Positions 12,030 to 40,271 of a stretch of 64,000 nucleotides of DNA are shown piece by piece (position 1 is the stretch's first letter; the number at the start of each line of letters is the position of its first letter). Source of the DNA: Schoenoplectus triqueter (taxonomy: Eukaryota; Streptophyta; Magnoliopsida; Poales; Cyperaceae). The position numbers were made by a program, and so were the translations under genes. Location: positions 62,001-126,000 of the forward strand of contig CAXKVV010000142.1 of NCBI GenBank assembly GCA_964058805.1. The letters run 5' to 3'. The notes beneath the pieces were generated by a model, which was given only the letters and a program-made list of their open reading frames with translations, was not told the origin of the DNA and ran no database searches.

Positions 12030-12722
12030 TCAAACCACTAAGGCCACCATCATATGAACGCCAATCAGTGCAGTAGTGAAGCTCATCGCAATTGTCATCG
12101 TGACTAAACGCTCCATCATGACTCCAGAAATCAGGCGTTGCAGCCCATCAGACGTGGCGCTTACACGGACCAGCAGAAGCACCATTGCAAGATTGAAATC
12201 ACAGAACAAGAGAAGATGGAACAGTATATTGCTTATGGAGTTGGTCCAGTTGTGGAATGAGAAAGATACGATTTGGTCAATGAGCAAGAGGATACCGGTT
12301 GAGATGCAAAGTATGGGAAAGGCCGGTACGAAGCCACCCTTGGGAAGGTAAATGGGTAAATCTAAAGATTTTGCAAAAAAAACACATACGATTAGCAGAA
12401 CAGTACCTTCAACAGCAGGCTTGACAGTATCCGGTATGACAACGGTTGTAAGTGCTGGCAACACCACAGCCGCCGCTCCGAGGAAAAGAGTAGTGAAGGT
12501 TACAGCCTGGGTCGCCATGGCCAGATGTTTTGTGTAAACTGATTGTGGTACGGCTACATGGAGGATCAGAAGAAGGATTGCGGAGAAGAAGGTGAAGAGG
12601 AAGGCGGGAACAACAAGCGGAATGAGGGGATTGTCACGGCTCTGATCAGCGAAGGTTATGAGAATGCCCACTGTGAAACAGAGAGTGAGAAAAAGGAGAG
12701 GTGGAATTGAGGCCATGACCAT
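12030..12722 (-). CDS. Multi-span membrane protein of the tandem family, copy 1 (clade A)
   Basis: A single-exon gene of 230 residues starts at ATG in MVMASIPPLLFLTL. The function is unknown and I do not recognise the family. Hydrophobic stretches suggest about seven membrane segments: near residues 5-25, 35-58, 68-92, 95-115, 128-150, 160-185 and 205-230. Shared motifs are FADQS after segment 1, LHVAVPQSVYTKHL after segment 2, a VPAF..LCIS stretch, LLLVRVSATSDGLQ and a C-terminal MMERLVTMTIAMSFTTALI. The start is supported by the same ATG context in the inverted orphan copy at 11.66 kb and by a TATA box 78 bases upstream. It groups by eye with the 15.1 kb copy (FADQS, no PFNR loop). It looks intact. 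No enzyme motif or signal beyond the membrane segments is visible. Confidence 0.8.
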   Translation of the reverse strand: MVMASIPPLLFLTLCFTVGILITFADQSRDNPLIPLVVPAFLFTFFSAILLLILHVAVPQSVYTKHLAMATQAVTFTTLFLGAAAVVLPALTTVVIPDTVKPAVEGTVLLIVCVFFAKSLDLPIYLPKGGFVPAFPILCISTGILLLIDQIVSFSFHNWTNSISNILFHLLLFCDFNLAMVLLLVRVSATSDGLQRLISGVMMERLVTMTIAMSFTTALIGVHMMVALVV

Positions 12723-12792
12723 GAATGGAAACTTGAAAGGGGAAGGTGCTCTGCTTAAGAGAATGAATAGATAATTACATACAGGGGAGGGA

Positions 12793-12800
12793 TATTTATA
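12793..12800 (-). promoter_or_regulatory. TATA box of the 12.0 kb gene
   Basis: TATAAATA on the minus strand lies about 78 bases upstream of the start codon. It is followed by CCCTCCCC and a pyrimidine-rich leader, and the same arrangement occurs in inverted form at 11.585 kb. Confidence 0.7.
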
Positions 12801-12973
12801 GGTGAAGAAAGGAAATGGTGGAACTGCGAAAGGAGATGGTGGAACACCCGCGGGACAGCATTTGGTAGGTGATTAGGTGACAATTTAGTTGCACAATACT
12901 TATTCTTGCAAGGTTTACCAAGTACTGACGTGGTCGATTCGTAGCGAACTTCTAAGAACGCCGTTCAATAGAA

Positions 12974-13202
12974 ATCTGCCATGTAAAGCAAAGTGTAAAC
13001 TGCGTGTATATTATAGTATGTCTCTCTGGCATGTAAAACAAAGTGAAAACTGCGTGTATATTATAGTATGTCTCTCTGGCATGTAAAACAAAGTGAAAAC
13101 TGCGTGTATATTATAGTATGTCTCTCTGCCATGTAAAACAAAGTGAAAACTGCGTGTATATTATAGTATGTCTCTCTGCCATGTACAACAAAGTGAAAAC
13201 TG
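12974..13202. repeat. 50-bp minisatellite, about 4.6 units
   Basis: A unit with ATGTAAAACAAAGTGAAAAC, TGCGTGTATATTATAGTATG and TCTCTCTGCC repeats at 12981, 13031, 13081, 13131 and 13181 with few changes. It lies about 250-480 bases upstream of the 12.0 kb gene. The units abut with no spacers, so it is not a CRISPR array. Confidence 0.95.
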
Positions 13203-14034
13203 CCTTATTCTGGTCCCCCCCGGCCCACAACAACAACGGCAGCCGCCTTCTACTAAAATGTGATCCACGTCATCGCACATTATTCCAGGAAGATTTCGGT
13301 CAATTCATTGCCAATTAAATTTGTTCAAAAAGTCTTTTGTATTTTAACAAATTCCTCCCTACAATTTTCTAAATAGCAGTCCTTTTTACCACATTTTGAC
13401 GTTGACTTGACACCAAAGCCCCTATGCTGTCTGTCATGATCTCTGAATAAAAAACCTTGCTCTTTTTGAACCCAAATCCTCTGGAATTGAAACAAGTTAA
13501 AACATATAAAGACATTAGATCCCACTAATTTTGTTTTAGTGTGTAATCAAACGACATAAATGCAATCATGAGATTTCTGAAAAATAATTTCTTATTTTAA
13601 TGTAGACATAACGAAAAAACTATGCAAATAAATAGGCATGTAATGTGAAGCAGTTAGAAAAAAAAAGGTTCAAATTAATCATTTAACTGATACAAGAGTG
13701 CTCCAAATAAAATTTGTAAAAAAAAAAAAGTTTTTTAGCTGTTGTTTTCGTTTTCCGTTTATTTTTGGAGGAAAAAACATGTTTTGTGGGGGAGGCGTTG
13801 TTTTGAAGTGCAGGAAGGCGTGAATTGGTAATCCAAATTAATTAAGGAACTGTATCGAAATAAAGATCAATCGCCCCTTTCGAATTATTGGAAACTGGCC
13901 CTTTGTTGCACAATTGAAAGTCTGAATCTCGCGGATTGAAAGATAATAAAGAATAATTTGGGGACCGCTTCACAAGAAAGTGCGTGTCTTGTTTTACAAG
14001 CACTGTCACTTCTGGTACGTACCAGCAAGTAACA
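13203..14034. other. Intergenic DNA, nothing supported
   Basis: The stretch is AT-rich with short frames only. The last eight bases (14035-14042) are the left target duplication of the next element. Confidence 0.45.
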
Positions 14035-14042
14035 ATCATAAT

Positions 14043-14736
14043 TAGGGCTGTTATTCGAGCGAGTTCGAGCGAGTTGGTATCAGCTCGAACTCAACTCGTG
14101 TGTTAAACGGGCTGAGCTGACTCGATATCTCAAGGCAGATGCGAGCTGAAAAGTCAGCTCAAACTCAACTCGTCGAAAACACGAGCTGGCTCGGAGCTCA
14201 TGAAATAACTCGTACAATGGCGACGAGGTTGGAAGGTGGTGATGCGGAACCGGACTCTGCTCCTCTCGACGTTCAGGTCTTGTGGAGAATGAAGATGTCG
14301 AGTGGTATTGAAAAAATTATCAGATTTAGAAAATGGAAATGAAGGGAGGAGTAAATATTTTTTTTTTGTTTTCCAATGATTCCTAGACAATAGGCTACTT
14401 GTCTATACGCAACCTACAGCCACTTGTTCAAAAAAGCTCTTTTTATTTTAAATTTTGAATGTCCTTGTCGAGTCATGTCCTCCTCATAAATTGTTGAATT
14501 GAATTATTGAAATAAGAAGACAAATCGCTGCTGAGTGACTCAATGAATAGATCGAGACTCCACTGTACGCGAATTGACGAGCGAGCCAGTGTTAACTCGT
14601 ACTCGGCTCAGATTTTATACGAGCCAACGAGCTCGAGCCGAATGAGTTCGAGTTGAATATGAGCTAGCTGTTGTCGAGTTAAATTGCGAGTGAGTTACGA
14701 GCGAGTTACGAGTTATGAGTTTTTTATCCAGCTCTA
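14043..14736. mobile_element. hAT non-autonomous element, 694 bp, GAGCTCG-rich
   Basis: The element begins TAGGGCTGTTATTCGAGC and ends CCAGCTCTA. A perfect 8-bp duplication ATCATAAT lies at 14035-14042 and 14737-14744. Both ends carry many copies of GAGCGAGTT, GAGCTCGAGC and their complements, the typical clustered subterminal motifs of hAT elements. There is no transposase. Frames inside it are not genes. It lies just downstream of the 15.1 kb gene's old 3' end. Confidence 0.9.
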
Positions 14737-14823
14737 ATCATAATATCATCTCGTTAAACTTGATGTCGGAATTCCAAAAGGTAAATTACGAAATTAAGGA
14801 GTAAGACAAAATTAGTTAAATTA

Positions 14824-15081
14824 TCAAGGCACAACATAATCAAGCACATATGTTACCATTAAAACGATAATAAATATAGCAGTTACGCCACACCAGAAAC
14901 TAGAATATACCCATCTAGAGGGCTCAAATGCAAGATTCAAACAAAACTGTTTTAGCCTCAGCCCTCGACCAATAATTCCACCATCGTATGGACATACATA
15001 CACGCCAACCAGCACAGAAAGTGAACCTTGCTGCAACCTTGTCTTCACTGAGCGCTCTATTATGACCGTTGAAATCAGGCA
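14824..15081 (-). other. Orphaned C-terminal reading frame of the 15.1 kb gene
   Basis: This frame is exactly in phase with the 15.1 kb gene beyond its stop. It begins CLISTVIIERSVKTRLQQGS, which aligns with LISGVMMERLVTMTIAMSF of the 12.0 kb copy, then diverges into a longer tail with one more hydrophobic stretch (FIIVLMVTYVL). It shows that the ancestral gene read through this region. Confidence 0.65.
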
Positions 15082-15696
15082 TCATGTCCCGTCTGGCGCG
15101 GCACTTGCACGGAGAAACAGTAGCACCATTGCCAGAATGAAGTTACAGAACAAGAAAAGATGAATCACTATGTTGCACAAGGAGCTGGAGTTGTGGTGGT
15201 ACGGGACGGATAAGGCAGAGAGGGTACCAGTGGAGATGCAGAGAAGAAGAAAAGTGGGGCCAAAGCCTGTAGTAAGGTATCTGGGCAAATTAAAAGATGA
15301 TCTTACTAATAGAAGATAAGTAATCAGCAGTGGCGCGACTATGACAGTGGGCTTGATTGTGTCTGGTACGATGGCAGAAGTGACAATGAAATTCACCATG
15401 AGAAGAGCTCCGAGGAGGAGAGTGGCAAGTGTGAGAGCACGGGTAACCATGGTCAAATATTTGGTGTAAACTGATTGTGGTATGGCGACATGGAGGGCTA
15501 AAAGAACGATTGCAGAGACGAAGGTTAAGTGGAGAAAGAAGAAGAGGGAGGTGCGGACAGCTAGGGAAACGAGGGAACTGTTGTGACTCTGATCGGCGAA
15601 GCTGATGAGGGGTTCGAGCATTATGACGATAGCCATTAAGAAAGAAAGAACGGGAAAAAGGAATTCCCGAATCTCTGCCATGAATGGAAGCTCCAT
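15082..15696 (-). CDS. Membrane protein of the tandem family, copy 2 (clade A), shortened by an early stop
   Basis: The open frame has 204 residues in a single exon. The first ATG gives MELPFMAEIREFLF; the paralogous start is the second Met (position 15681), because TTCCATTCATGG matches the 12.0 kb leader and start. Motifs are FADQSHNSS, LHVAIPQSVYTKYL, a LLLCIS stretch and LFLRASAAPDGT. The frame stops with TGA two codons after PDG, where copy 1 reads on as LQRLISGV. Homologous sequence continues in phase for about 28 codons past the stop. The product would lack the last membrane segment. It may be a recent pseudogene or a shortened protein; transcripts would decide. The function is unknown. 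Confidence 0.6.
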   Translation of the reverse strand: MELPFMAEIREFLFPVLSFLMAIVIMLEPLISFADQSHNSSLVSLAVRTSLFFFLHLTFVSAIVLLALHVAIPQSVYTKYLTMVTRALTLATLLLGALLMVNFIVTSAIVPDTIKPTVIVAPLLITYLLLVRSSFNLPRYLTTGFGPTFLLLCISTGTLSALSVPYHHNSSSLCNIVIHLFLFCNFILAMVLLFLRASAAPDGT

Positions 15697-15820
15697 TAGG
15701 AATTAGGAAATGCTCTGCTCAGAGCCTCAGAGAGGGATAAATCTTCGTGTGGGGGGTGGGGTGGGGTTGTGGCCTTGTGCCCTTGTGGGAGATGAGAGGA
15801 CTCTGTAGAGGACGAGATTT

Positions 15821-15830
15821 AATATTTATA
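15821..15830 (-). promoter_or_regulatory. Possible TATA box of the 15.1 kb gene
   Basis: TATAAATATT on the minus strand lies about 125 bases upstream of the first ATG, farther than in the paralogs (about 75-85 bases). A weaker candidate (GATTTATCC) lies near 15.735 kb. Confidence 0.4.
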
Positions 15831-15839
15831 AAAAAAAAG

Positions 15840-16549
15840 GTCATCGGTAGCAAATGCATTCACATCCATAGTCACCATAACCCATTGGGATGCCTCCATT
15901 TCATAATTACTCCCCCTTTAAGAGGTATTATATTTCTCTTATCCATTAGATTAAATTGAGACTATATATTGTAATAAAAAAAATAGAATCTTGCCTGCTA
16001 TTGTAAAATGGGACCACCTAAAGTTTTTAAATTAAGTTTCGAATTTGATAGGATAAGTTCAGATGAACATAATAATGTGATTTGCAAATTGCAGTGAAAA
16101 ATAAAATCAATAGTAATTGCATAGTTCTCCAGAGTGCAGTGTGTAGAGTGTAGACCACAATCAAATCCATCCACAAATGAGCTGATTATTTTGAATCTGA
16201 ACGAAAGATGTGCGGCTACGCAATAAAATTAATGAGTTTACTAAAATATGTGGCCGCCAAATTACTTTCCTATATAGTATCATAATTATTTTTTCTTTCC
16301 AATACAAGTTAGTTGTTTTAAGAACCTTCTTTCAAGAATAAAATAATTACCCTATATCACTCAATTTATTTGGACCAGTTATGATCGACATGTTGTTTAA
16401 ATAAAGTACTATGCACATTTATTAAAAAGTTAATTAATTATTTTCAAATTGTTATATATAGAATGCCATTAGGAGCTGATGAAGAGCCAAGAGAGCAGGT
16501 TGAACAAATAAACCACATGCGATATATAGATGGTACGCTATATTATGTT
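15840..16549. other. Intergenic DNA, nothing supported
   Basis: AT-rich, with no recognisable gene or element ends. Confidence 0.4.
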
Positions 16550-16601
16550 GACCCACGGCCAGAGGGAAGCTACAGGACAAGAAAAGATGTATCAGTATGT
16601 T
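16550..16601 (-). pseudogene. Short fragment of a membrane-family gene
   Basis: The plus-strand stretch with GCCAGAGGGAAGCTACAGGA and ACAAGAAAAGATGTATCA resembles 15134-15174 in copy 2 (GCCAGAATGAAGTTACAGAA then ACAAGAAAAGATGAATCA), which encodes part of segment 6. About 45 bases match before a hAT-like end begins at 16602. It is too short to be certain. Confidence 0.45.
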
Positions 16602-17036
16602 TAGGGCTGTCAACGAATTCCGTTTCGACCGCGTTTCATTTCGTTTCGTGGTAACGAAACAGTTAATGAAATGAATTTCTGTTTCGTTTTATTAAATGAA
16701 ACTGTTTTCTATTTCACGAAACGGCCGAAACGGTTAACGAAACGGTTTTTTTCATTTCGTTAAGAGTATTTCAGTGTGTAAAAGACACGAAATTTTGTGT
16801 TTCGTTCCATTTCGTGATAAATAAAATGGTTAACGAAATGATTTTCTGTTTCGTTTATTAAACGAAACGGTTAACAAAATTGTTTTCTGTTTCGTTTATT
16901 AAACGAAACAATTAACGAAACGGCACTATTATTAATTTTTTATTTAGTACCTAATTAATTATGGAATTGAACCCAATAAACTATTATAATCCGATAATTA
17001 CTTTCCTTAATTAAAATTCTGCGTTCGTCGTCCCAG
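16602..17036. mobile_element. Chimeric hAT-like element
   Basis: The left part starts TAGGGCTGTCAACG and carries many TTTCGTTT and CGAAACGG subterminal motifs to about 16922. The right part from about 16923 matches the 3' end of the Tip100-like copies (TTTAGTACC, GAACCCAATAAACTATTATA, TCCGATAATT, ending CTGCGTTCGTCGTCCC). No matching pair of ends or clear 8-bp duplication is seen, so two elements appear fused or one has been cut by the other. Confidence 0.6.
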
Positions 17037-17230
17037 TTTGCATGAACAATGGAGATCATAATAATTTATTAACCCGTGACGAAAGGAATGACGGAAACTT
17101 ATTAGAAAGGGGACACAACTCACAACTCACAAGAGGTCTGAATGGGAAGTGTGGAACCGAGATCCCTTTCAAGTTACAGGACGGATCATAATAATTTATT
17201 GATTTTTTTGGTATGATAAAAAAATCCGGA

Positions 17231-17763
17231 CGGGTCAAACCCGATCCACCAAATCCGTGGCCGCGATCCGACCCGTCCCGACCCGTGACTCAACCCGTCA
17301 AACCCGTGACCCGTTAGAACCGACAGATTTAACACAGACATGGGCAAAAAATTTTCAAAAAACCTCGTGCTAGACCCGACCCGACCCGTCCAACCCGTGC
17401 AAACCCAGGAAAATTCAAAAAATGTAAGAAGAATTATTTTTTTGGTAAAAATATAAATATTTATATATTTTTAATATTCTAAATAATTATTTTTAAATTT
17501 TTTGAAATTTCTGAGAATTTATTTGGATTTTATTGGGTTATTTTTTAATTTTGAAAAAAAACTTTGGACCCGACCCGACTTGCCCCACTCTTGAACCCGA
17601 CCTGATCCGCCCCGCCGACTCGTCCAACCCGACGGGTTTAGGACGGGTCGCGGCCAAACCCTCCAAAATGAACTCGTACTAGTCCCGTGAAAATCAATTG
17701 ACCCGTCCCGCTAAAACCCGCCGACCCGTGCAAATCCGTCCCGACCCGACCCGTTTTTAATTT
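17231..17763. mobile_element. ACCCG-rich hAT-like element
   Basis: Dense CCCGACCCG repeats occur at both ends (17.23-17.42 and 17.56-17.76 kb) around an AT-rich core. This is the same composition as the elements at 31.3, 36.7, 45.8 and 63.7 kb, which have TAGGG-type ends and 8-bp duplications. Exact ends were not found. Confidence 0.6.
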
Positions 17764-18278
17764 ATTTGAGTACCAACTTTCATCATCTATCTTTTAACAT
17801 CAAATCCTATTTAATTTATGATTAGCTAATATCTACCCTAAATTACTAGAATTCACTTTTGCTCCATCATTAATAAGTCGAGTTGAATAATAACGTCCCC
17901 TCATATTTCTACACTTTTACTTTCACTTCATCACGTAAAAATGTAAGTTCATGGTTTTCGGGATTAATCACAAGCAAATATTATTTTGAACAAAAGAAAA
18001 TACTTAAGCAAATACTTATGTTTTAACCAATTATAATCAAAACTATGTAGCAAGATTAACAATTCAATAAAACAAAGCAAATCAAAGAACAAATCTGACC
18101 CTAGGAGATAGCCTAGCCTACTATGATGCAAGTAAACTAGTGTGATCCATTACTTTGCCATCTACATTGTTTCATCTCTAAAATCCTAAAACTACATGGC
18201 TCATATAGAAATACGGAAAAACCTGATGGGATAATAGTTGTTACGTCAAGACGCCCCGGCATGAAAGGGACTCAGATG

Positions 18279-20516: not shown

Positions 20517-21143
20517 TTGTTGTTCCTTCCTTTTTCAAGGAGCCTCAAGGCCCACAAACAAGACGAGGCCCAAATTAATTATTCTAAAAGTTTTCAGCCA
20601 AGCCTGAGAGCCCAGCAAAGGGGAGCATTCAGGACATCCCAAATAGTACTAACATTTCGGCACGAGACCATAAGGTTTCAGTACGCTTACTCTGAAAATT
20701 AAAAATAAAATAAAAAAGAAGATACCAGTAACGAAACAACACTGGCACCGACTGGTACAAGTGCCAATAAAGACAAAGAGGCATTTTAAAGTATGCTTCA
20801 AGCGTGAAAGTCTTTCATAACTGAAATATCAAAGTCTACAACATCACTAAAGATTAAATGCCCCCTCAAGACTAAGTTATAGAAAGAATAATCTAAGGAT
20901 CAGTATAGAATACCTAACTTCTGAAAACCCATTTTCAGCATTTCAAAATCACACGTCAAGAGTTCATAACCAAGTACCTGTACTGTCTGGTACCAATACC
21001 TAATTCCGAGTAAAACCCTTTATACCAAAATAATAATTTAAGAAATTTCATGGGGCCTAATTGTTATTTTCTTATTGCAGGTTTAACTCGGAACTAGGTA
21101 ATGGTACCAGATTCTGGAAGTACAGTGATTACTTATTTTCTAT
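20517..21143. repeat. Array downstream block, copy at 20.5 kb
   Basis: This is one of four related downstream flanks (also about 24.7-26.0, 32.9-34.5 and 38.4-39.5 kb). Shared marks are GGCCCAAATTA, GTTTTCAG, then GATACCAGTAA, GACTGGTAC, GAAATATCA, a TCACTAAAGATT-like motif and CTGGTACCAATACC. It lies 3' of the minus-strand 21.1 kb gene. No conserved reading frame was seen. Confidence 0.7.
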
Positions 21144-21818
21144 TTAAACATGGCTAATTGAAATGATCCCAACCAGGAATTGTACAACCATGCAAAAGTC
21201 GATCAGTGCAATAATGGAACTCATCCCCAGCACTGCCTCAACCAAATACTCAATCACAACAGCAGGTATTACAACTTGTGTTCCATCCGTAGGCACACGT
21301 CGGCTGATAAATAGCAGAACCAAGGTGAGAAGGAAGTTAAAGTAATTCAGTGAGAGAAAGAGAAGCTCAATTGGAATGGGGCCTAAGCTGCTTTTGTCAT
21401 TTTTGTCAGAGAAGGAAAACAAGGGGCAAATGAACAAGATGGTACTTGCTGAGATGCATAGTCCAATTAATGCTGGTACCAAATTTCCGCCCAATTGACG
21501 GGCATAATTGATACATATATTGAATGGATCAAACTTGTACATTGCTGCGGCTGCCACACCTATAAATGGTGCCACATGGATGATGCGAGGTGTACTGAAG
21601 AACAGAATAGCAGAAACAAGAACCTGGAATACAAAATTGGTCAAATGGTTGGTGTAAGCAGATTGTGGCATGGCCACATGGAGGGGAAAATGAATAATAT
21701 AAGAGGTGAGGGTAAACCAAAACAGGCAAAAGAGGAAGGTTATGAGCGAGCCCGAAAGCATGAAACCAGTAATTGATATAACAAGAAAGAGAAAGAGGAG
21801 AGTATGATCCGGCTTCAT
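21144..21818 (-). CDS. Membrane protein of the tandem family, copy 3 (clade B), internally shortened
   Basis: A single exon encodes 224 residues, starting MKPDHTLLFLFLVISITGF. Motifs are LHVAMPQSAYTNHL, FDPFNICINYARQ, NLVPALIGLCISAST, LGPIPIELLFLSLN, VPTDGTQVVIPAVVIEYLV and a C-terminal hydrophobic segment. Compared with the 26.0 kb copy it lacks about a dozen residues after SLITF (the SNQ..NNS loop) and about a dozen after HVAPF. Both gaps keep the frame. The stop lies five residues past the paralog's end. The frame is open, so it may be expressed, but loss of the loop and part of one hydrophobic segment may alter topology. The function is unknown. Confidence 0.7.
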   Translation of the reverse strand: MKPDHTLLFLFLVISITGFMLSGSLITFLFCLFWFTLTSYIIHFPLHVAMPQSAYTNHLTNFVFQVLVSAILFFSTPRIIHVAPFIGVAAAAMYKFDPFNICINYARQLGGNLVPALIGLCISASTILFICPLFSFSDKNDKSSLGPIPIELLFLSLNYFNFLLTLVLLFISRRVPTDGTQVVIPAVVIEYLVEAVLGMSSIIALIDFCMVVQFLVGIISISHV

Positions 21819-21897: not shown

Positions 21898-21906
21898 TTA
21901 TATAAA
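21898..21906 (-). promoter_or_regulatory. TATA box of the 21.1 kb gene
   Basis: TTTATATAA on the minus strand lies about 80-88 bases upstream of the ATG, a position shared with the 12.0 and 26.0 kb genes. Confidence 0.65.
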
Positions 21907-24699: not shown

Positions 24700-26042
24700 T
24701 ATTATTTCGAAACTTGAACCGCTACAGAAAAGTAGAAGAAAGTCGAGGACCAATAAATAATTTCTTTCTTTCTTTTTCCTTCAATAATTCAAGGCCCGGA
24801 GGCCTACACACGAGCCAAGGCCCAAATTATTTCAAGTTTTCAGAAAAGCCCGATAACCCATTTAGACCCAAATCATAATTTTGACGATTGGGACAATGAA
24901 ATTCGAAATAAGGATACCAGTAAAGGAAGAACAGTCAGTACCGACTGGTAACGATGTCAATAGTGCCACTGAGGGTGTTTTACTGTATGTCTCAAGCTTA
25001 AAGAAAGGTTCTCATACCCGAAATATCAGAGGTGAACACATCACAAAAGATTGAATGCTCCTTCAATACAAAGTCAAGGGAAATAACAAACTAAGCCCAT
25101 TGATTTGTTTAGAAAACTTGCTTAAAATTTTGGGAAAAAATTTTCAGCAATTCAGAATCACTGGTCAAGAGTTAAATCCTTATGTCTCAGGTTAAATCCT
25201 TAACAAGTCCATATGTTATATGACTGACTAGACCTACAGTCTTGGATCAATACCGAACTGCGTGTTAAACCCTTTATGAGAAGAGAAAAATTTAAGCGTC
25301 ATGAAATTTCTATGCTACACGACTCACTAGACTGCTACAATCTTGCGCCAATAACAAGTTCCAGGTTAAACCCATTATGACAATTTAATTATTTAAGCGT
25401 GGTGAAATTTCTTAATTGACATTTAAAACCAGAATCACTCTTCTTGAAGTTTTTATTTGCATTTTAAATTATTCATTAAAGTCAAATAGTGTACAATTTA
25501 GGGTTTAGATTAAAACCCCAAAACCCGTCCCGACATCATATGCCATTAACCCCTCAAAATCCAATTTAAGCATCACACAAAAAGCCCCAATGCATGATTG
25601 TTTGTGTCTTACAGATATCAGTTCACAGAGATGCATGGAACCACTTATGGTGCGTATCAACCCCCTTCTGCCTTTGGAGGTCACAGATAAAATAAGCATG
25701 TCAGGCTATCAGCGCTATCACACAGACCGTTATTGTGAGCGCTACTCCGAATTAGTTGTAGTATTAATCAAGTTTTAGTGTTAAAAATTGTTTTTACAGA
25801 ATTGGGACATCACCCGGACCACAAAAATATACAGTCAGTATTAAAGCAATAACTACAAAAACAGAACTTAGAAATGGAGCAGTGAGCACTCTTCTTCTCT
25901 ATTTAAACTTAGCTATTTAAACCTCAAGCCTAGTATAGATGATAATAAGTTTCACCTCTCTGAGAAAGACATACGAAAAATAATATATATCGGAAATTAT
26001 AAGAGCCTTTTTTTAAAAAAAGAAAAGAAAAGCATATCTTAT
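24700..26042. repeat. Array downstream block, copy in block X
   Basis: The copy has AAGGCCCGGAGGCCTACACA, CCCAAATTATTTC, GATACCAGTAA, ACCGACTGGTAACGATGTCA, CATACCCGAAATATCAGAGG, and the short-frame segment at 25.5-25.8 kb. It is colinear with Y. At 25654-25661 GTATCAAC is the empty site of the Tip100-like insertion present in Y. Confidence 0.75.
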
Positions 26043-26789
26043 TTAAAAAATCCCAACCAATGATTCTACAATCATGCAAAAGCCGATCAGTACAATATTG
26101 AAACTCATCACCAGCACTACATCAACCAAATACTCAATCAGAACAGCAGGTATTGCAACTTGTGGTCCATCTATGGGGAAACTTATGCGGATAAATAGCA
26201 GCACCATGGCAAGAAAGTAGGTTAAGTAATTCAGAGAGACGGAGAGAAGCTCGATTGGAATGGGGCCTAAGGTGCTTTCGTCAATTCTGCCAGAGAAGGA
26301 AAAGAAGGGGCCGACGAACAAGAAGGTACTTGCTGAGATGCATAGTCCAATAAATTCTGGTACCAAGTTTCCGGCTGTTTGGCGGGCATAATTGATATGT
26401 CTATTGAATGGATTATACTTGTATATTGCTACAGCCACCACACCTATGAGCATGAACTTGAGAGTATCCAGCATGATGGCCTCAGTGAATCCCACGTAGA
26501 TCATGAGAGGTGTACCAAAGAGCAGAATAGCAGAAACAAGAACCTTTGTCGCAATATTGGTCAATTGGTTGATGTAAGCAGATTGCGGCATGGCCACATG
26601 GAGGATCAAAAGAATAATAGCAGACATGAAGGTAAATGGAAACAGGAAAAAGAGGAAGGTCCGAAAAGCTAGCAAAGCGAGAGAATTGTTACTGTACTGA
26701 TTGGAAAATGTTATGAGAGAGTCAGAAATCAAAATACCAGTAATTGAGAGGGAAAGAGACAGAAAGATGAGAGTTTGAACCGGCTCCAT
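26043..26789 (-). CDS. Multi-span membrane protein of the tandem family, copy 4 (clade B, full length)
   Basis: A single-exon gene of 248 residues begins MEPVQTLIFLSLSLSITGI. It is the best full-length clade B copy. Predicted membrane segments lie near residues 7-27, 40-63, 80-100, 104-123, 142-163, 176-200 and 222-246. Motifs in order are ITFSNQ with an N-N-S sequon (34-36), LHVAMPQSAY (63-72), FGTPL (91-95), YNPFNRHINYARQ (125-137), NLVPEFIGLCISAST (141-155), LGPIPIELL (174-182), DGPQVAIPAVLIEYLV (207-222). The function and family are unknown to me, and no catalytic or transport signature is visible. The start is supported by paralog alignment and by a TATA box about 80 bases upstream. It is intact and the most likely active clade B copy besides that at 39.5 kb. 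Confidence 0.8.
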   Translation of the reverse strand: MEPVQTLIFLSLSLSITGILISDSLITFSNQYSNNSLALLAFRTFLFFLFPFTFMSAIILLILHVAMPQSAYINQLTNIATKVLVSAILLFGTPLMIYVGFTEAIMLDTLKFMLIGVVAVAIYKYNPFNRHINYARQTAGNLVPEFIGLCISASTFLFVGPFFSFSGRIDESTLGPIPIELLSVSLNYLTYFLAMVLLFIRISFPIDGPQVAIPAVLIEYLVDVVLVMSFNIVLIGFCMIVESLVGIF

Positions 26790-26863: not shown

Positions 26864-26872
26864 CTTATATAG
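26864..26872 (-). promoter_or_regulatory. TATA box of the 26.0 kb gene
   Basis: CTATATAAG on the minus strand lies about 75-83 bases upstream of the ATG, matching the paralogs. Confidence 0.65.
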
Positions 26873-27573
26873 AACAAGATTGAAATTTGGAGGGAAAAAA
26901 AATTCCTTTTCCAATGAAATGTCTGTGAAATACAGTGATGCACCATCCAGGAAATTTCATCGCTGTCCCTGTCCTGATGTTGATTGGCACTTGTAATGTG
27001 GTGGCGCTATCAATCAAGTAAAAACTTTTGTAAGGGGAAGGATTCCTTTGACTGGGGTTATTTTGACAATTTTAAAATGGATAAATATAAAAAATCTTAA
27101 AATTAGAAAATATTTTATAGATACATTTTTTTAGTTATAGATTGATAGTGTTTCAGAGTTTATGCAATTTCATTAACGTTTGATAGTCTACTAATGTCCG
27201 TTAAATTGAAATCATTATAAATTATATAAAATTTTGATGGTTTTTGATAGACTATTAAGCGATAATGAAATTGTATGAAATTTAAAAAGTTATCAAGTAA
27301 AATAATATATCTATATATTTTTTATTTTTTTATATTTATTGAAAAGTTCATTGTGAAAGTTAATAAAATAATAATTGTCAAGGAATCCCTCTTTTTTTAT
27401 AAAATTCCATGACTGTTTTCCTTTGAAGGTATGTGATTAGTAGTTGAATGAGAAGAGGATCCAAAGGACAGTAGTGTGGTGAGGGGGCAATGCAACGGAT
27501 ATACAAGTCGGTGAATTTTTCACTTCCAATTTTATTATTTTCGCATATTAATTTGAAGTAGTTCTCTTTCATT

Positions 27574-28245
27574 TATCATGCTATTAAATAACATCGTATT
27601 TGTAGGTTTTGATTTTCAGTTCAATCATCAAGCATAATAAATTCACACTATTACTGTTTCAGTGAAGTTCTTTTGATGTTGTTTATTAAATTTTCATCTT
27701 CACCACTAGTCCTTGAATTTCTGTAAAAAGAACTAATTTATTCTGTAAAAAGAACTAATTGAAATCTGTAAAAAAGTAAAATCCAAGAATCAAATTAGTT
27801 TTTTTTTTAATTTCAAGGATCAAATTAGTTTTTTGTTTTGTTTTGAAAAGTTAAAGGATTTATTTAGTATAGTTTAAAATTTAAAGACGAACGTATAGTA
27901 GGTTTTGATTTATCATGCTATTAAATAATATCGTATTTGTAGGTTTTGATTTTCAGTTCTATCATCAAGCATAATAAATTCACACTATTACTGTTTATTG
28001 AGTGAAGTTCTTTTGATGTTGTTTATTAAATTTTCATCTTCACCACTAGTCCTTGAATTTCTGTAAAAAGAACTAATTTAATTCTGTAAAAAGAACTAAT
28101 TGAAATCTGTAAAAAAGTAAAATCCAAGAATCAAATTAGTTTTTTTAATTTCAAGGATCAAATTAGTTTTTTTTTGTTTTGAAAAGTTAAAGGATTTATT
28201 TAGTATAGTTTAAAATTTAAAGACGAACTTATTTTTTTTAAAAAA
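27574..28245. repeat. Tandem duplication, period 337 bp
   Basis: TATCATGCTATTAAATAA begins at 27574 and again at 27911. Each copy continues through TCGTATTTGTAGGTTTTGAT, CACCACTAGTCCTTGAATTT and CTGTAAAAAGAACTAA to the TTTAGTATAGTTT segment, with only small differences. It lies upstream of the 26.0 kb gene. Y has a single degraded equivalent at about 35.94-36.03 kb. Confidence 0.9.
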
Positions 28246-32879: not shown

Positions 32880-34534
32880 AAACTTGAACCCCACGAGAAA
32901 AGTCGAAGGAAGTTCAGGACCAAACAATAATTTATTTTATTTCTTTCCACTTCCTTCAATGATTCAAGGGGCCGGAGCCCTGAGGCCTAAACACGAAACG
33001 AGGTCACGAGGCCCAAATTATTTCTAATAAAGTTTTCAGCAAAAGCCCGAGAGCTTTTTTAGATCCTCAAATCAAAGGTTTTCACGATCGGAACAATGAA
33101 ATTCGAAACATGGATATCAGTAAAAGAAGAACAGTCAGTATCGACTGGTAACGATGTCAATAGTGCCACTGAGGGTGTTTACTGTAGAACTCAAGCTTCA
33201 AGACTGGTTCTCATACCCGAAATATCAGAGGTTAAGAAATCACAAACTAAGACCATCTATTTGTTTAGAAAACCTTGCTTAAAATTTTGGAAGTTCTTTT
33301 CAACATTTTAGTATCACAGGTCAAGAATTCATGACCAACTATGCATCAGGTTAAATCCTTAACAAGCCTATATTTTATATGATGAACTAGACTGGTACAA
33401 TCTTGTATCAATACCAAATTGCGTGTTAAACCCTTTACCAGAAGATAAAATTTAAGCGTCATGAAATTTCTATGTTACACGACTTATTTGGACTGGTACA
33501 TTCTTGTACCAATAACAAGTTACAGTTTACACTCCTTATGACAATTTAATTATTTAAGCCTCGTAAAATTTTCCTAATTAACATTTTTAATCATTCATTA
33601 AAGTCGAATCGTGCACAATTTAGGGTTTAGATAAAACCCCCAAAATCCATCCCGACATCATATCTGATCTGCCAATAACGACTCAAATCCAGTTTAAGCA
33701 TCACAACCAAAGCCCCCATGCATGATTGTGTGTATCTTACAGATATCAGTTCACAGAGATGCATAAAAGCCCTTATGGTGCATATGAACTAGGGACGGAC
33801 CCTGTAAAAACTAGGGAAGGTCAACTGACCCTTCTGAATTTTGAAAAATAGTATTTTTAGATTAATATTTTGTTAATTTGATCCCCTCTGAATTATTTGA
33901 TTATTTTTTATTGAGAAAAAAATATTTAATACCGTGAATAATGAAATAATTATGTAAATATTCTAAAATGTGTAGTCCTGTAGAAAAAAGTTTTCTTCAT
34001 CGACATAATTATCTACTATTTTGAGTTTTATTTTTTGTTATTTTTAATATATAAAAAGATATTATTTTGATAGTTTTTTAATATTCCAAAAATATATGTT
34101 GAATTATTGATTTTTTTATTTAGTATCTGATTAGAAAATGAATTTGAATCTGATAAACTATTATAATCCGATTACTGACCCCGATCAAAATCATGCATCC
34201 GCCCCTGGTATGAACCCCTCTGCCTTAGGGAGTGCACAGAAATAAAGAAAACGAGGCAGTGTCACACAGGCCGTTATTGCAAGTGATAGTCTGAATTATT
34301 ACTAAATCAGTAACTAAAAATTATTTAGTACTAAAGCAGTAACTAAACAAGGTTTAATACAAAAAATTGTTTTTACAGAATTGGGGACATCATCAGGACC
34401 ACAAAAATAGACAATAACAGCAAAGACAGAACTTAGAAATGAAGGATCAGTGAGTACTCTTATTCTCTATTTAAACTAAGCTTATTTAATCCTCAAGCTT
34501 AGTATAGATAGTAATAAATCTAGCCTCAGTAGTA
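32880..34534. repeat. Array downstream block, copy in block Y
   Basis: Colinear with 24.7-26.0 kb, including GACTGGTAACGATGTCAATA and CATACCCGAAATATCAGAGG, but interrupted by the Tip100-like copy C at 33.79-34.21 kb. Confidence 0.75.
33790..34207 (+). mobile_element. hAT (Tip100-like) element, copy C, block Y insertion 3
   Basis: Degenerate ends TAGGGACGGACC and GCATCCGCCCCTG. The target duplication is ATATGAAC (33782-33789) and GTATGAAC (34208-34215), 7 of 8 bases. X holds the unfilled site GTATCAAC at 25654-25661. The 418-bp interior matches copies A, B, D and E. Confidence 0.88.
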
Positions 34535-34954
34535 CTACTTCAATCTCTGAGAAAGATATATGAAAAATAATATATATCGGGTTGACAGAAACCTATTTTT
34601 TAGAAAAAGAAAAGAAATGCACATCTTATTTAAAAAAATCTCAACCAATGATCCTACAATCATGCAAAAGCCGATCATTATAATATTGAAACTCAAAACC
34701 AGCACTGCCTCGACCAAACACTCTATCAGAACAGCAGGTCTTGCAACTTGTGGTCCATCTGTGGGGACATTTATGTGGATAAATAGAAGCACCATGGCAA
34801 GAAAGAAGGTTAAGTAATTCAGTGAGACGAAGAGAAGCTCGATTGGAATGGGGCCTAAGGTGCTTTCATCATTTCTTCCAGAGAAGGAAAAGAAGGTGCT
34901 GATGAACAATAAGGTACTTGCTGAGATGCATAGTTCAATAAATGCCGGTACCAA
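34535..34954 (-). pseudogene. Membrane protein of the tandem family, copy 5, 5'-truncated
   Basis: Only the C-terminal half remains. The frame enters without an ATG at LVPAFIELCISASTLLFI and continues through LGPIPIELLFVSLN, VPTDGPQVARPAVLIECLV and a final membrane segment. Then the old stop is lost and it runs on into a tail ending YLSQRLK. Compared with the 26.0 kb copy, the first 141 or so residues and the promoter are gone. The break lies after GGTACCAAGTTT, exactly where a foldback element starts. It is dead as a gene. Confidence 0.9.
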
Positions 34955-35274
34955 GTTTAACTCAAAAAATATATCAAATTGTTTCGAAATTTTAATTTAT
35001 CATTCTCATTAAATTTTTTATATGAAAATATCATGGGATGCAAAAATTTAGAGCGTTTTGAGCTTTTCAAGTCGTGATTTTTAATTTTTGAAAATCAGCT
35101 CTAAAAATAATAATAATATATTCAATACTTGATATTTTAAAAAATTAAAAATGATGACTTAAAAAATTCAAAACACTCCAAATTTTTGCATCCCACAAGA
35201 TTTTTATAAAAGAATTTAATGAGAATGATAAATTAAAATTTCGAGATGATTTGATATATTTTTTGAGTTAAACT
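34955..35274. mobile_element. Foldback element with about 155-bp inverted arms
   Basis: The left end GTTTAACTCAAAAAATATAT and the right end ATATATTTTTTGAGTTAAAC are inverse copies, and the similarity continues inward through AATTTTAATTTATCATTCTC and GGGATGCAAAAATTT to a short AT-rich centre near 35.11 kb. No clear target duplication remains, because the left flank is the broken gene and the right flank is unrelated to the gene. Confidence 0.85.
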
Positions 35275-36694
35275 CACGGAAGGTCTTCGTAAGATTAAGC
35301 TCTTTATTTTAGTTTTCTTGAATAAATATTGTGGCTGATGGATGGCTTATTATTATATTACATATGAATCCTCAAAATTGATTCGCCTTATCTTTTGATT
35401 CAAATTTAAATCTTTTACACTTGATCTGTTAAGAATCGATTAAATAATGTTTATGTAATCTTTTGCAGAAGATTTATGTTGTTTCAAAATGTATGCTGAA
35501 AAATGACAAAAAACAATTATTTATTGTGTATTGGACTTGTGGTGTGCATTCCAAATAAGACCAGACGATGACATGTACCACAGAATTTAATATTTTAATT
35601 ATCATGCTACAGACAAAATTTAATAATAGGAGGTTCAGCTGTCCATCATGTCGTCATTGTTTAATTTTCTAATAACTCAAACTTAAAAAAAATTATAAAA
35701 ATTATTGTTAAATTTAATCTATATTACTTGTTTACTTTATTTATGCATAGAAAAGAAATTATAACATTTTGATATTCCTCGGTTTAACTTCAATAGAGTT
35801 TAGAAGAAATACATTGACGTAAATGACATTGATTGTTTAACTTTTGTTTCATATAAAATGAAAGTGACAAAGCGAAAAAAAATATTACATGAAAATAATA
35901 TACTATAAATTAAATCTAACAATTTTATTTTGATATTTAAATTTAGTTCAAGGATCAAATTAGTTTTTCTTTTGAAAAGTTAAAGGACAAATTTAGTATA
36001 GTTTAAAATTTAAAGACAAACTTACTTTTTAAAACAAAGTTCAAGGACCAACTTAAAAAAAAAATCCAAGGATGGATGTAGTTTTTTTTTAAAGTCCAAG
36101 GATTGTTTTGGTATTTTTTTTTTTAAATTTAAGGACCAATTTAATATAAATGGTAGTTTATAAACTAACGTTTTTTAAAAAAGGTCAATAGACCAAATGT
36201 AAATTTGCCCTTAATTTTAGAACTTTGAAGCACACAAGATCAATAATGTGGTCGCTTTTGTTGGCATTTGTAAAGGAGCTAGCTATAAGCTATAGATATG
36301 TACGACACTAAATCAAGTACATAATAAAGTACAAGAAAAGGGAGGCCCAATTTGCTTGCTTCTTAGAAGCAAAAAGGAAAAAAAATAACATCTGCTTCTA
36401 AAGTGCCAACACTTTTGAATAAATCACCAAAAGTCATTGAAGCGTCATTTGCGTCATAAAGTAAAGTGGCACCTTCTCTGAAATCACGAGTCATGACCTT
36501 AGAACAATTATTCACATACAGACGCTTACACTGTTTATTACTACGTGGCGACTTTTTATTGGATGTGTGCCACGATAGATTAAATAAATTCGGTGTGCGC
36601 ATGTTTAAGTAATTTTATTTCGGCGTCATGCAGGTCAAATAAGAATGAACCTTTTCTTAAAAAAAAAAAGCCGTGACAAAGGTATAGCGTGTCT

Positions 36695-37063
36695 CAATAA
36701 GTCCGATCGGGTCGGATTATATTATTTTATTATTATTTTTGTTCTGATCCGAATATGATTCGATTAAATTCGGATAAAATTTTTTTGATTCATATCTAAC
36801 CCGTATAAAATAATTATTTTTATATAAATTTAAGCAATAAAATATTAATTAATTTATAATTAATCTTAATTAGTGTATATTTAAGCTTTTATTAGTACTA
36901 AATAAAAAATTACTTCAAAAAATATAATTAATCGGGTCGAGTTGACCCGAACCTGACCCGACCCGATTCGGGTAAAAAAAATTGAACCCATACCCGACTC
37001 ATTTATCTTTAGGTCGTGTCGGGTCGGGTTCAGGTCGGATCGGGTCAAGAATTGACACCTCTA
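36695..37063. mobile_element. hAT element (ACCCG-rich), block Y insertion 4, 5' end lost
   Basis: A perfect 8-bp duplication GCGTGTCT lies at 36687-36694 and 37064-37071. The right end is ATTGACACCTCTA. The left end starts at CAATAAGTCCGATCGGG and lacks the expected TAGGGGTGT bases. X has a single GCGTGTCT site near 29.25 kb. CGGGTC motifs cluster at both ends. Confidence 0.88.
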
Positions 37064-37246
37064 GCGTGTCTCCATCATATGATATCTGAGCAAGAGAAAG
37101 AGAATAAAATTAAAATTGAGGCCGTGAATTTTATTTAGGATTAATTGTTTTGTTGTTGTTGTTGTTAGGATTTTAAGTTGATTAATGAAAAGTACTAATT
37201 ACTGAAGGTCTGATTTTATATGAAAATGTGTTACTTTGTTCGTGTT

Positions 37247-37578
37247 TAAGGATGTCGAAATTTGATCTAATCCGATCTAAAATGAATTGGATTAAGATTT
37301 TTTAATCCGTCACGCTTAATTATATTTTTTATATTATTTTTATGATTTAACTCTAATTAAAAATTATATATGTTAATTAATATTAAATTGCTTAAAAATA
37401 TATTAGAAGTGATTAATATACATTTAATTATTTTATTCGGATCGACGAATCAATCTGCGTTGCGTTAGGATTGGATAAATAAAAAAAATTAACTAAATGA
37501 ATCAAATTAGATCAGATAAAAATAATAAAATAATAATAATGATGATCACAACCGAACCCAAATCATTAACGCCCCTAT
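37247..37578. mobile_element. hAT-like element, degraded
   Basis: TAAGGATGTCGAAATTTGAT at the left and CATTAACGCCCCTAT at the right resemble the TAGGGGTGTCAA-type ends of the neighbouring elements, and the AT-rich core is related. Target duplication is not clear (5 of 8 bases). Confidence 0.55.
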
Positions 37579-37579
37579 T

Positions 37580-38329
37580 CTTTATAAACGAATCATTCGT
37601 CAGTCGATAGAAGCAGAAACATTTTTCCCCCTCTTTTGCATCCAATTTTTTTTCTCCAAATACATTTGAATCCGTCCAAAGAAGCTACTGTTTTAAAAAA
37701 GAGAGAATAAGAAGAGAACGAATTAAGGTCAATTAATTGTCACAGTCATGCATCTTCCAAGTCTCTTTCAAATATTCAAACCCTTCGAAATTTCAACCAG
37801 CAACTGCAAGGATGGTGGTACACGTAACAAGTACATATATACCTCGACGTTGAATTTTGTCCGCTTTTGGATTTCAAGTTCTCAACAAAATAGATGGCAT
37901 TAGATCAGCAAAATTGGACTTACTTACGTCACCAAAAATGTACTTATATTCCATGAAATTTACAGCTTTCTTTGCTCTTAGAAATGTACTTAACCATCTC
38001 ATAATTTTATTTTTCAAATAAATAGTTAAAGCATGTTGTAAGAATATATGAAGAAACGATAATGTGAAGCACATTGGGGATTATATAAATTTCCTTAGAA
38101 CTACTCATTTTAAACATACATCTGCCTTATTCGCAAATGTACCACTTACAAATTACAATTATAATATGCAAAACATAAAATACAAGAGGGTCTTCAACAC
38201 AAAATGATTAATAATTTTGGCAATTTTGAGGTAGTTTAACCAGCAGCTATCAAGTTAATGTAGCTCCTACCAGTTCATTAATTGATTAATTTGGAAATTT
38301 GTAAAAAAATAAATAAATTTGCAGCTTAG
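37580..38329. other. Intergenic DNA, nothing supported
   Basis: No recognisable gene or element ends; frames are short. Confidence 0.4.
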
Positions 38330-39530
38330 TTACCAAGGTTGAGGAATGAAAAGATATTCGGCAAAGAGTTTAGTATAGCAGCCCAAGTTGCAATTTGGAT
38401 TAAATTGGGTCTAATATCACCTATCCTGTCTCAAAAATCAACAAAGGCACCAAACTTCAAGGCCCATATTTCCTTTTATAATTCATGTAGCCCATAGGCC
38501 GACAAACCAGACGAGCCCAAATTATCTGTAATTTTTTTAATTCAAGTCCGAGAGCACAGAAAAGGGGGGTATATTTTAGTGCTTGAATTTAGAATAATAG
38601 ATACCAGTAAAAAATTAAAACACTGGTACCAACTGGTACGAACATCAATTATGTCACAGAGGGAGGTTAGTATATGGCTGAAGCTAAAAGAAAGCCTCTC
38701 ATACTCGAAATATCAAAGTTTTGTACATCACAAAAGATTGGACACCCACTCAAGAGTCAAGACTAAGAGAAAGAACAAACTGAGACCCAGAAGCGTTTAG
38801 AAAACTATAAATTTTGAATAATCATTTTCTGCGTTTCAAAATCACATGTAATGAGTTTATGACTAATTATGCTTCACTTTAAATGCTTCACAGTCTTATA
38901 TGCTATATGACTGACTAGACTGGTACAGTCTTGTACCAATACCTAATTTTGGGTTAAACCTCATTGTTAAGAGTTTTGAGCACAAACAAGCAAAAAAAAA
39001 AAAGGAGAAATGACCTCATGGAATTTCGTAATAATCAGTTAAAGCCAGATCACATCTCTGATGTCCTTACTAATTTGCATTCTAAAGCATCTGCAGGAAT
39101 CAAAAAATCCAGCCCAACATCATAATAGAGCTGCCATTAACCCCCCAGAATCCAATTTAAGTATCACAAGCAAAATCCAAATGAATTATTATGTATGTTA
39201 GATATATCAGTTCACAGAGATGCATGAAAGCCTTTATTGTGCATGTTGCTGTTGTCTGCCTCTGGGGCGCACCGGTATTAAAAAAAAAAAGAATTTGTCA
39301 TTGTAGGCAGTAGTGTCACACCGGTACTGGGTCAAATTTGGTAGTAGTATCAAATAAGGTCAGATATTTTAAAATAGGTTTTGCAAAATTGGGAACACCA
39401 GACCTGGACCTCAAAAATAGAAAGCCAGTACTAAAGCAATAACTGCAAGAATAGAACATAGACAAAAAAAAAAAAGGGCACTGGACACTCTTATTCTCTA
39501 TTTATACATAATTATTTACATGATCCCAAC
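38330..39530. repeat. Array downstream block, copy at 38.4 kb
   Basis: Begins with AAGGTTGAGGAATGA and CAATTTGGATTAAATTGG, which recur at 53.76 kb. It continues with GACGAGCCCAAATTAT, GATACCAGTAA, CTGGTACCAACTGGTACG, ATACTCGAAATATCAAAG and a GGTACAGTCTTGTACCAATA palindrome, like the other downstream flanks. Confidence 0.7.
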
Positions 39531-40271
39531 CTATAATTCTTCAATCATGCACATGACAATCAGTACAGTAGTGAAACTCATAACAAAGATCGCCTTCATC
39601 AAGTGCTTGATCAGAACAGCAGGTATGACATCTTTTGGCCCTTCTGCCAGCCAACCTATGCGGATAAACAGCAGCAGCATGGCGAAAACGAAGTTCAAGA
39701 AATTTAAAGCCAGTAAGAATTGGATCAGTATGGAAATTGAGGCACTTTCGTGGTATTGAAGGTGGAAGGAGAAGAAGGGATCGATGAACGAGATGGTAAA
39801 TATCGAGATCCCAAGTGCCACGAAGGTCGGAACAAAGCTTCCATCAGTTTGACCGGCGGAATCGAAATATTCTTCGAATGGATTAAAATTATATGCCACC
39901 CCCACTGCTGCTGTCACCACTGAGCCAATGTACATGACCATTAGAGTATCCGGCGTGACTGCCTCGGGGAATGACATGTGGGCCACAAGAGGTGTTCCAA
40001 GGAACAGAGTACTGGAAAAAAGAACCCTGCTAGCTGTGATCAAGCGCTGGATGAAGGAATCTGAGTGGGGCACGGCAACATGAACGAACAGAAGGATAAT
40101 TGTAGAGGTGAAGGTTAATGGTACCAGCAAAAAGAGTAACACATGAACAGCTATGAAAAGGAGGGAGTTGTTGGGGTGCTGATTAGAAAAGGTTATGAGG
40201 GGTTGGAAGAGTACAACGGCATTGATTGAGAGAGAAAGAGAGAGAAAGAAGAGAACTTGAATTGGAACCAT
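39531..40271 (-). CDS. Multi-span membrane protein of the tandem family, copy 6 (clade B, divergent)
   Basis: A single exon encodes 246 residues, starting MVPIQVLFFLSLSLSINAV. Motifs are ITFSNQHPNNSL (sequon N-N-S), FVHVAVPHSDSFIQRL in place of LHVAMPQSAY, FLGTPL, YNFNPFEEYFDSAGQ, SFVPTFVALGIS, LLFIRIGWLAEGP, and DVIPAVLIKHLMKAIFVMSF. It is the same length class as the 26.0 kb protein and about seven membrane segments are predicted. It is more divergent than the other clade B copies and ends MIEEL. The frame is intact. The function is unknown. It lies at the right edge of the array. Confidence 0.8.
   Translation of the reverse strand: MVPIQVLFFLSLSLSINAVVLFQPLITFSNQHPNNSLLFIAVHVLLFLLVPLTFTSTIILLFVHVAVPHSDSFIQRLITASRVLFSSTLFLGTPLVAHMSFPEAVTPDTLMVMYIGSVVTAAVGVAYNFNPFEEYFDSAGQTDGSFVPTFVALGISIFTISFIDPFFSFHLQYHESASISILIQFLLALNFLNFVFAMLLLFIRIGWLAEGPKDVIPAVLIKHLMKAIFVMSFTTVLIVMCMIEEL

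What the first reader, a model, noticed from the sequence alone, without database searches (positions are those of the whole stretch)
12030..40271. Tandem array of an unrecognised, single-exon, multi-span membrane protein family
Six copies lie on one strand over 28 kb, each with about seven hydrophobic segments and shared motifs (LHVA-PQSxY after segment 2; a VP-F--L-IS stretch; DGPQxxIPAVLIE). There is no intron and no motif of a transporter, channel or enzyme that I know. Two sequence clades (12.0 and 15.1 kb; 21.1, 26.0, 34.5 and 39.5 kb) suggest old and newer duplications. The family could be lineage-specific. This is the main candidate for an undescribed system. It may still be a known family that I fail to recognise.
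Basis: partly seen in the sequence, partly recalled or inferred. Interest (0 to 1): 0.75.

Follow-up and report, generated by a model that had tools for sequence, protein, structure and literature searches.

The report
Orphan seven-helix membrane protein gene array
A stretch of plant DNA carries a row of related genes, some intact and some broken, for an unnamed membrane protein that looks like two copies of a three-helix unit joined by a seventh helix, an arrangement best known from sugar exporters, although no kinship with those could be found.

Summary
The array is real. Six related minus-strand copies lie at 12.0-40.3 kb in plant nuclear DNA, with a seventh fragment about 2 kb left of the window. 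Four have full open frames (12.0, 21.1, 26.0, 39.5 kb). The 15.1 kb copy stops before its last helix; the 34.5 kb copy keeps only its 3' half, next to a high-copy palindromic MITE-like element. Three protein queries found no other copy in the 82 Mb held of this genome, which may be partial. Pfam, NCBIfam and PDB sequence searches give only scattered weak hits. The only relatives found are five metagenome proteins; four match single copies at 94-99% identity. New here: an internal duplication, helices 1-3 matching helices 5-7 (hhalign E 8.8e-8; 0 of 500 hydropathy-class shuffles reach its score). It implies a parallel 3+1+3 layout as in SWEET sugar facilitators, but SWEET sequence tests fail. 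Deep pairs show moderate constraint by one method (NG86 omega 0.42-0.57; YN00 higher); young pairs do not differ from neutral. Best reading: an undescribed, old, partly decayed plant 7-helix family, most likely a small-solute facilitator (mechanism about 0.3). Fold and expression are unconfirmed; lineage restriction is untested.

The parts
12030..12722 (-). c12: intact 230-aa frame (family start Met at 12716), clade 1
   Evidence: counterpart P0005, 226 identical, 2 mismatches
12795..12800 (-). TATA motif (TATAAA) 84 bp upstream of the c12 family start
   Evidence: sequence
15082..15696 (-). c15: 204-aa frame, clade 1, premature TGA before the last helix; homology continues to 14995; no TATA motif in the 140 bp scanned; probable pseudogene
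21144..21818 (-). c21: 224-aa open frame with two in-frame deletions relative to c26
   Evidence: counterpart P0003 shares the deletions
21898..21904 (-). TATA motif (TATATAA) 86 bp upstream of c21
26043..26789 (-). c26: intact 248-aa frame, clade 2
   Evidence: counterpart P0001, 234 identical, 14 mismatches
26499..26765 (-). internal repeat unit A of c26, residues 9-97 (TM1-TM3)
   Evidence: hhalign of the two halves of alignment A3
26067..26354 (-). internal repeat unit B of c26, residues 146-241 (TM5-TM7)
   Evidence: hhalign of the two halves of alignment A3
26865..26871 (-). TATA motif (TATATAA) 82 bp upstream of c26
34535..34957 (-). c34: 3' half only (family homology 34634-34957), pseudogene
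34953..35275 (.). palindromic MITE-like element at the broken end of c34
   Evidence: 88 matches in the held genome, palindromic copies counted in both orientations; 40 of 1917 candidates scored
39531..40271 (-). c39: intact 246-aa frame, clade 2
   Evidence: counterpart P0004, 244 identical, 2 mismatches
40372..40377 (-). TATA motif (TATAAA) 106 bp upstream of c39
24860..25310 (-). non-coding block 3' of c26, also 3' of c34 (33058-33470) and c39 (38584-38960), and in part of c21 (20720-20976); the search of the held genome with it found only the first three places

Best explanation
A tandemly duplicated plant nuclear family of apparently intronless 7-helix membrane proteins that arose by internal duplication of a three-helix unit: TM1-3 matches TM5-7 and TM4 is the linker. 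Because each unit has an odd number of helices, the two units sit parallel in the membrane as a pseudo-twofold pair. I think the protein works as a small-solute facilitator with a path between the two units, in the manner of SWEET; a basic residue sits at equivalent places at the ends of TM2 (His of H-V-A) and TM6 (Arg or His in five of six copies). Three copies (c12, c26, c39), and perhaps c21, look like functional genes; the others have decayed. Shown here: array, frames, internal sequence repeat, some past constraint, decay of copies. Inferred: fold, path, transport. Probability: anatomy about 0.85; facilitator mechanism about 0.3.
For: Internal repeat: hhalign between halves E 8.8e-8, probability 94.4, score 47.4, against a maximum of 24.8 in 500 hydropathy-class column shuffles (0 of 500 reach it) and 13.0 in 100 reversed-rotated controls (these are rotations of one profile, hence not independent). 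On single sequences the halves outscore all rotated-reversed controls in 9 of 10 proteins, narrowly in c21, P0003 and c26. The parallel 3+1+3 layout is described for SWEET in PMC7162841 (passages). Constraint: NG86 omega 0.42-0.57 in six deep pairs, 0 of 300 bootstraps at 1 or above in each; neutral simulation keeps the frame open in at most 1 of 1000 runs in each of four deep-pair settings. TATA motifs 82-106 bp upstream in 4 of 5 copies that have a 5' end. Counterparts of c12, c39 and c21 with 2, 2 and 1 mismatches in metagenome DNA.
Against: No sequence link to SWEET: no MtN3_slv hit in hmmscan at E<=10 (the filters drop most matches above 0.1); hhalign probability at most 0.1 in 6 comparisons with SWEET exon fragments of the same genome, positive control 88.6. 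AlphaFold models are poor (pLDDT 42.6 and 45.4); Foldseek on the second gave 0 of 143 matches at E<=0.001. Loop charges of c12 suggest an N-terminus inside, opposite to SWEET (recalled). P0002 does not show the repeat: 93 of 98 controls reach its score. YN00 omega is higher, near 1 in some deep pairs; young pairs are near-neutral; between c26 and c39 the 3' flank (66.5%) is as conserved as the coding region (67.5%). The proline after TM2 has no constant partner after TM6: c12 and c39 lack it. No transcript data.
Confidence: 0.3

Rival explanations
1. A dying family: the proteins once had a membrane role, but in this plant the array is now under weak or no constraint and most copies are relics.
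For: Three of seven copies are broken or fragments. Four young pairs have omega 0.65-1.28 with bootstrap ranges that include 1. YN00 omega is near 1 in some deep pairs too. c26 differs from P0001 at 14 sites while c12 and c39 differ at 2 from their counterparts.
Against: c12 and c39 are 99% identical to their metagenome counterparts, with open frames and TATA motifs; deep pairs are below 1 by NG86. Omega on short young pairs is imprecise.
Confidence: 0.3
2. A non-transport membrane protein: a 7-helix receptor or scaffold, or a membrane-shaping protein of the secretory pathway.
For: Seven helices; a parallel 3+1+3 layout is also argued for GPCRs in PMC7162841 (passages).
Against: No GPCR, opsin or other receptor family in Pfam; short loops and tails, so little room for ligand or partner domains (alignment).
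Confidence: 0.2
3. A highly diverged member of a known plant membrane family that sequence profiles cannot reach, such as SWEET/PQ-loop or NPF (an NPF-like fragment lies next to c12).
For: 3+1+3 repeat; PTR2 fragment at 10928-11311.
Against: No MtN3_slv, PQ-loop or PTR2 hit listed at E<=10; hhalign to SWEET exon fragments negative. NPF has about twelve helices (recalled).
Confidence: 0.15

Closest known systems
SWEET sugar facilitators (MtN3_slv; PMC5742349 abstract, PMC7162841 passages)
   Same: Seven helices, two three-helix units in the same sense with TM4 as linker; similar length of about 250 aa (recalled)
   Different: No detectable sequence kinship; single open frame, whereas the SWEET matches in this genome fall in separate exon-like pieces; weak charge bias in c12 suggests N-terminus inside
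[quoted passage not shown]
   Same: Mostly 7-helix proteins thought to descend from an internal duplication (recalled in part)
   Different: None of the weak Pfam hits is a TOG family that I know (recalled); membership would need structure
NPF/POT (PTR2) transporters
   Same: Plant multi-span transporters; an NPF-like fragment lies beside c12
   Different: About twelve helices (recalled); no PTR2 match in the array proteins

Membership tests
SWEET (MtN3/saliva) | MtN3_slv domain (PF03083) | tested here: not met
   hmmscan at E<=10: no hit in 6 proteins nor in 10 members of A3; matches above about 0.1 are mostly filtered out
SWEET (MtN3/saliva) | profile similarity to SWEETs of the same genome | tested here: not met
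   hhalign probability 0.0-0.1 in 6 comparisons with 3- and 4-row alignments of SWEET exon fragments; positive control SWEET vs SWEET 88.6
SWEET (MtN3/saliva) | two parallel three-helix units plus linker helix | tested here: inconclusive
   met as a sequence repeat TM1-3 vs TM5-7; structure not obtained
SWEET (MtN3/saliva) | sugar transport | not testable with these tools
   needs an uptake or efflux assay
TOG superfamily | fold or profile link to a member family | tested here: inconclusive
   no such Pfam hit; Foldseek on a low-confidence model, 0 of 143 matches at E<=0.001
NPF/POT | PTR2 domain (PF00854) | tested here: not met
   no hit in array proteins at E<=10, while the neighbouring fragment scores 2.8e-11
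Family restricted to one plant lineage | absent from other plant genomes | not tested
   no plant genome or proteome collection on hand; only JGI metagenome proteins found

The most novel reading that the evidence does not exclude
A plant family of transporters that reached the parallel 3+1+3 pseudo-twofold architecture independently of SWEET, by its own internal duplication, and is confined to one plant lineage.
Probability: 0.15. Interest if true: 0.7.

Novelty: new variant of a known kind. Interest (0 to 1): 0.4.

Why it matters
If the 3+1+3 repeat is confirmed by structure, it is a further route to the architecture of SWEETs, in a family that no Pfam model recognises. The array also shows such a family being duplicated and broken, with a MITE-like element at one broken end. 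If the copies prove unexpressed, it is an ordinary decaying orphan array.

Tried and rejected
Dispersed or mobile origin of the proteins: rejected, because the seven copies lie on one contig in one orientation, and the 3' flanking block of c26 was found only there.

Chance frames in AT-rich DNA: rejected by the neutral simulations for deep pairs.

Weak family hits: in the six window proteins Holin_9 E 1.2, EMP70 E 2.9, CATSPERD-E_C E 3.8; among 10 members of A3, APO_RNA-bind E 0.0049 and DUF423 E 0.033, each in 1 of 10, CATSPERD-E_C in 2 of 10 (best 3.3), Holin_9 and EMP70 in 1 of 10; MobC E 0.7 in 1 of 10; radixin E 0.86-1.1 in PDB. Taken as chance: each is seen in only one or two members and all but APO_RNA-bind and DUF423 have E above 0.1.

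The structure route failed: two AlphaFold jobs, mean pLDDT 42.6 and 45.4. The Foldseek list (best 50 of 143 shown) is from the low-confidence second model and is not used as evidence of fold.

A first SWEET comparison used the wrong strand for five of seven loci and is void; it was redone.

Other collections: no relative in viral contigs (3 stretches matched a pattern, none confirmed) or genome contigs (40 stretches, none confirmed). By their descriptions these hold viral and prokaryote sequences, so little was to be expected. Paper searches: motifs (0 papers), family description (0 papers; 7 listed, titles and starts of abstracts seen, none about this family as far as those show). A claim that it is not in print rests on these three searches only.

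Full report
What is there. The window is part of a 511-kb contig (C140:62001-126000) of an 82-Mb assembly in 2086 contigs, 32.6% G+C. It is plant nuclear DNA: TTTAGGG arrays occur in the assembly (359 overlapping matches), and the neighbours of the array include an NPF/PTR2 fragment, an F-box piece and a KIB1-4 propeller piece. SWEET-domain matches fall on only four contigs (7 matches), against 17 SWEET genes in pineapple and 25 in Medicago (abstract starts of PMC9697096 and PMC6783836 in the listing), which suggests, from one gene family, that the 82 Mb are part of a larger genome.

The array. Six minus-strand copies lie at 12030-40271. By tblastn all match each other. Six-frame searches of the held genome with c26, c12 and c39 return 7, 7 and 6 places, all in this array (all candidates of the first look were scored). 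The seventh is a 3' fragment at C140:59981-60271, about 1.7-2.0 kb left of the window, 82-83% identical to the C-terminal part of c12. Full open frames: c12 (230 aa), c21 (224), c26 (248), c39 (246). c15 stops at a TGA before the last helix, and its homology to the others runs on past the stop. c34 has only its 3' half: homology stops at a 323-bp palindromic element (34953-35275) and no N-terminal half was found in the next 3.6 kb upstream. That element is a MITE-like family: 88 matches, palindromic copies counted in both orientations, with 40 of 1917 candidates scored; the 39 best other matches are 92-93% identical.

Gene-like signs. In the 140 bp upstream of the family start, TATA motifs stand at 84, 86, 82 and 106 bp in c12, c21, c26 and c39; c15, the copy with the premature stop, has none. 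A random 80-bp stretch of this window holds such a motif with frequency 0.16; the scanned stretch was longer and the pattern was chosen after a first look, so this is supporting evidence only. Starts align across copies, so single-exon genes are the simple reading. No transcript evidence was available.

Evolution. The protein tree (11 rows, the outside fragment left out) has two clades, c12/c15 and c21/c26/c34/c39, each 100/100; c15 is a long branch and the tool warns that long branches meet. NG86 omega with codon bootstrap was computed for ten of the 21 pairs. Deep pairs: c12/c15 0.42, c26/c39 0.51, c12/c26 0.56, c12/c39 0.48, c15/c39 0.53, c21/c39 0.57, with 0 of 300 bootstraps at or above 1 in each (bootstraps with saturated dS were scored as 0, which leans towards constraint; the upper bounds are 0.62-0.80). 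Young pairs: c12/fragment 1.28, c26/c34 0.85, c21/c26 0.99, c21/c34 0.65, with ranges that include 1. YN00 values are higher, several near 1 even in deep pairs (c12/c26 0.79, c15/c26 0.94, c21/c39 1.0), so the constraint is weak to moderate. Flanks give a mixed picture: c26/c34 coding 90.8% against 3' flank 80.8%, but c26/c39 coding 67.5% against 66.5%. The open frames argue for constraint independently: neutral drift of c26 or c39 to their mutual identity leaves a stop-free frame in 1 of 1000 runs each, c12 to c26 or c39 distance in 1 and 0 of 1000; for the young c21/c26 distance in 15-20 of 1000, and for c26/c34 in 135 of 1000. The simulation has no indels.

Relatives. Three searches of 5.8 billion proteins gave five JGI metagenome proteins in all. 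P0005, P0004 and P0003 are counterparts of c12, c39 and c21 with 2, 2 and 1 mismatches (P0003 also has two more residues), P0001 of c26 with 14; P0002 (64% to c26) is a further copy not seen in the held genome. So the differentiated copies exist in other plant material, of the same or a very near species. The profile search scored only the 7993 candidates sharing most words, and I made no control for plant coverage of the collection. Absence elsewhere in plants is therefore not shown.

Internal repeat. The first and second halves of alignment A3 (10 rows, effectively about six distinct proteins) match each other over TM1-3 and TM5-7: hhalign probability 94.4, E 8.8e-8, 21% identity, score 47.4. 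Controls: columns shuffled within hydropathy classes, maximum 24.8 of 500; reversed and rotated second half, maximum 13.0 of 100, though these rotations are not independent of each other, and the 100 forward rotations made in the same script were not reported because they keep the true match. On single sequences 9 of 10 proteins outscore all rotated-reversed controls, narrowly in c21 (41 vs 40), c26 (65 vs 63) and P0003 (37 vs 33); P0002 does not (93 of 98 controls reach its score). The match spans all three helices in c12, c26, P0001 and P0005, about two in c39 and P0004, and one in c15, c21 and P0003, in these between equivalent helices. The fourth helix links the units. Three helices plus one plus three gives two units of the same orientation. 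PMC7162841 (passages read) describes this construction for SWEET and gives about 20% as the average identity between units in several such families.

What it is not. No MtN3_slv, PQ-loop, PTR2 or receptor family is listed by hmmscan at E<=10; the weak hits are scattered over one or two members each. SWEET exon fragments of the same genome do not match it by profile comparison (probability at most 0.1; SWEET against SWEET 88.6). No solved structure by sequence. Both AlphaFold models are too poor to use: the c12 model has seven helices, the c26 model eight, with the fourth split in two. The Foldseek search of the c12 model has nothing at E<=0.001.

How it may work. Inference only: two parallel units around a central path would let a small solute through, as SWEET does. 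A basic residue stands at equivalent places after TM2 (His of H-V-A, in all five copies that keep this part) and after TM6 (Arg or His in five of six copies; c21 has Ser there, followed by two Arg); these could mark the two gates. The proline after TM2 has no constant partner after TM6. In c12 the loops alternate in charge (loops 2, 4, 6 net +1; loops 1, 3, 5 net -1), which by the positive-inside rule puts the N-terminus inside; SWEET has it outside (recalled), so the likeness may be of design and not of descent. The other copies do not show this alternation cleanly.

Verdict. A real, partly decayed tandem family, undescribed in the sources searched, with a convincing internal duplication. Interest 0.4.

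Noticed in passing
10928-11529, - strand: Fragment of an NPF/PTR2 transporter gene between the seventh array fragment and c12 (PTR2 E 2.8e-11 for 10928-11311; the adjoining frame to 11529 reads like its N-terminal part, recalled).
   Followed up: partly
62638-63664, - strand: F-box piece and KIB1-4 beta-propeller piece in overlapping different frames, as if one F-box/KIB1-4 gene were frame-shifted.
   Followed up: no
55359-57978, + strand: Frames that read like exons of a KEA potassium/proton antiporter (recalled; the two frames scanned gave no Pfam hit at E<=0.01).
   Followed up: no
20720-20976, 24860-25310, 33058-33470, 38584-38960: Non-coding block 3' of four copies; the c26 block is 77% identical to that of c34 and 72% to that of c39, and no place outside the array was found in the held genome. 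Possibly a 3' UTR or regulatory element.
   Followed up: partly
34953-35275: 323-bp palindromic MITE-like family on many contigs; the 39 best other matches are 92-93% identical to this one.
   Followed up: partly
5350-5750, 8237-8645, 33826-34207, 41291-41683, 52680-52981: Dispersed repeat of about 300-400 bp in both orientations, 72-83% identical among these five places.
   Followed up: no
12975-13203 and 27567-28232: Tandem repeats: about 50-bp steps upstream of c12, and a duplication of about 330 bp upstream of c26.
   Followed up: no
L015 3437-4168 and 5946-6350; L018 6203-7843: Beyond the array: frames that read like pre-mRNA splicing factor PRP38 on the left and a class III peroxidase on the right (recalled, not searched).
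   Followed up: no
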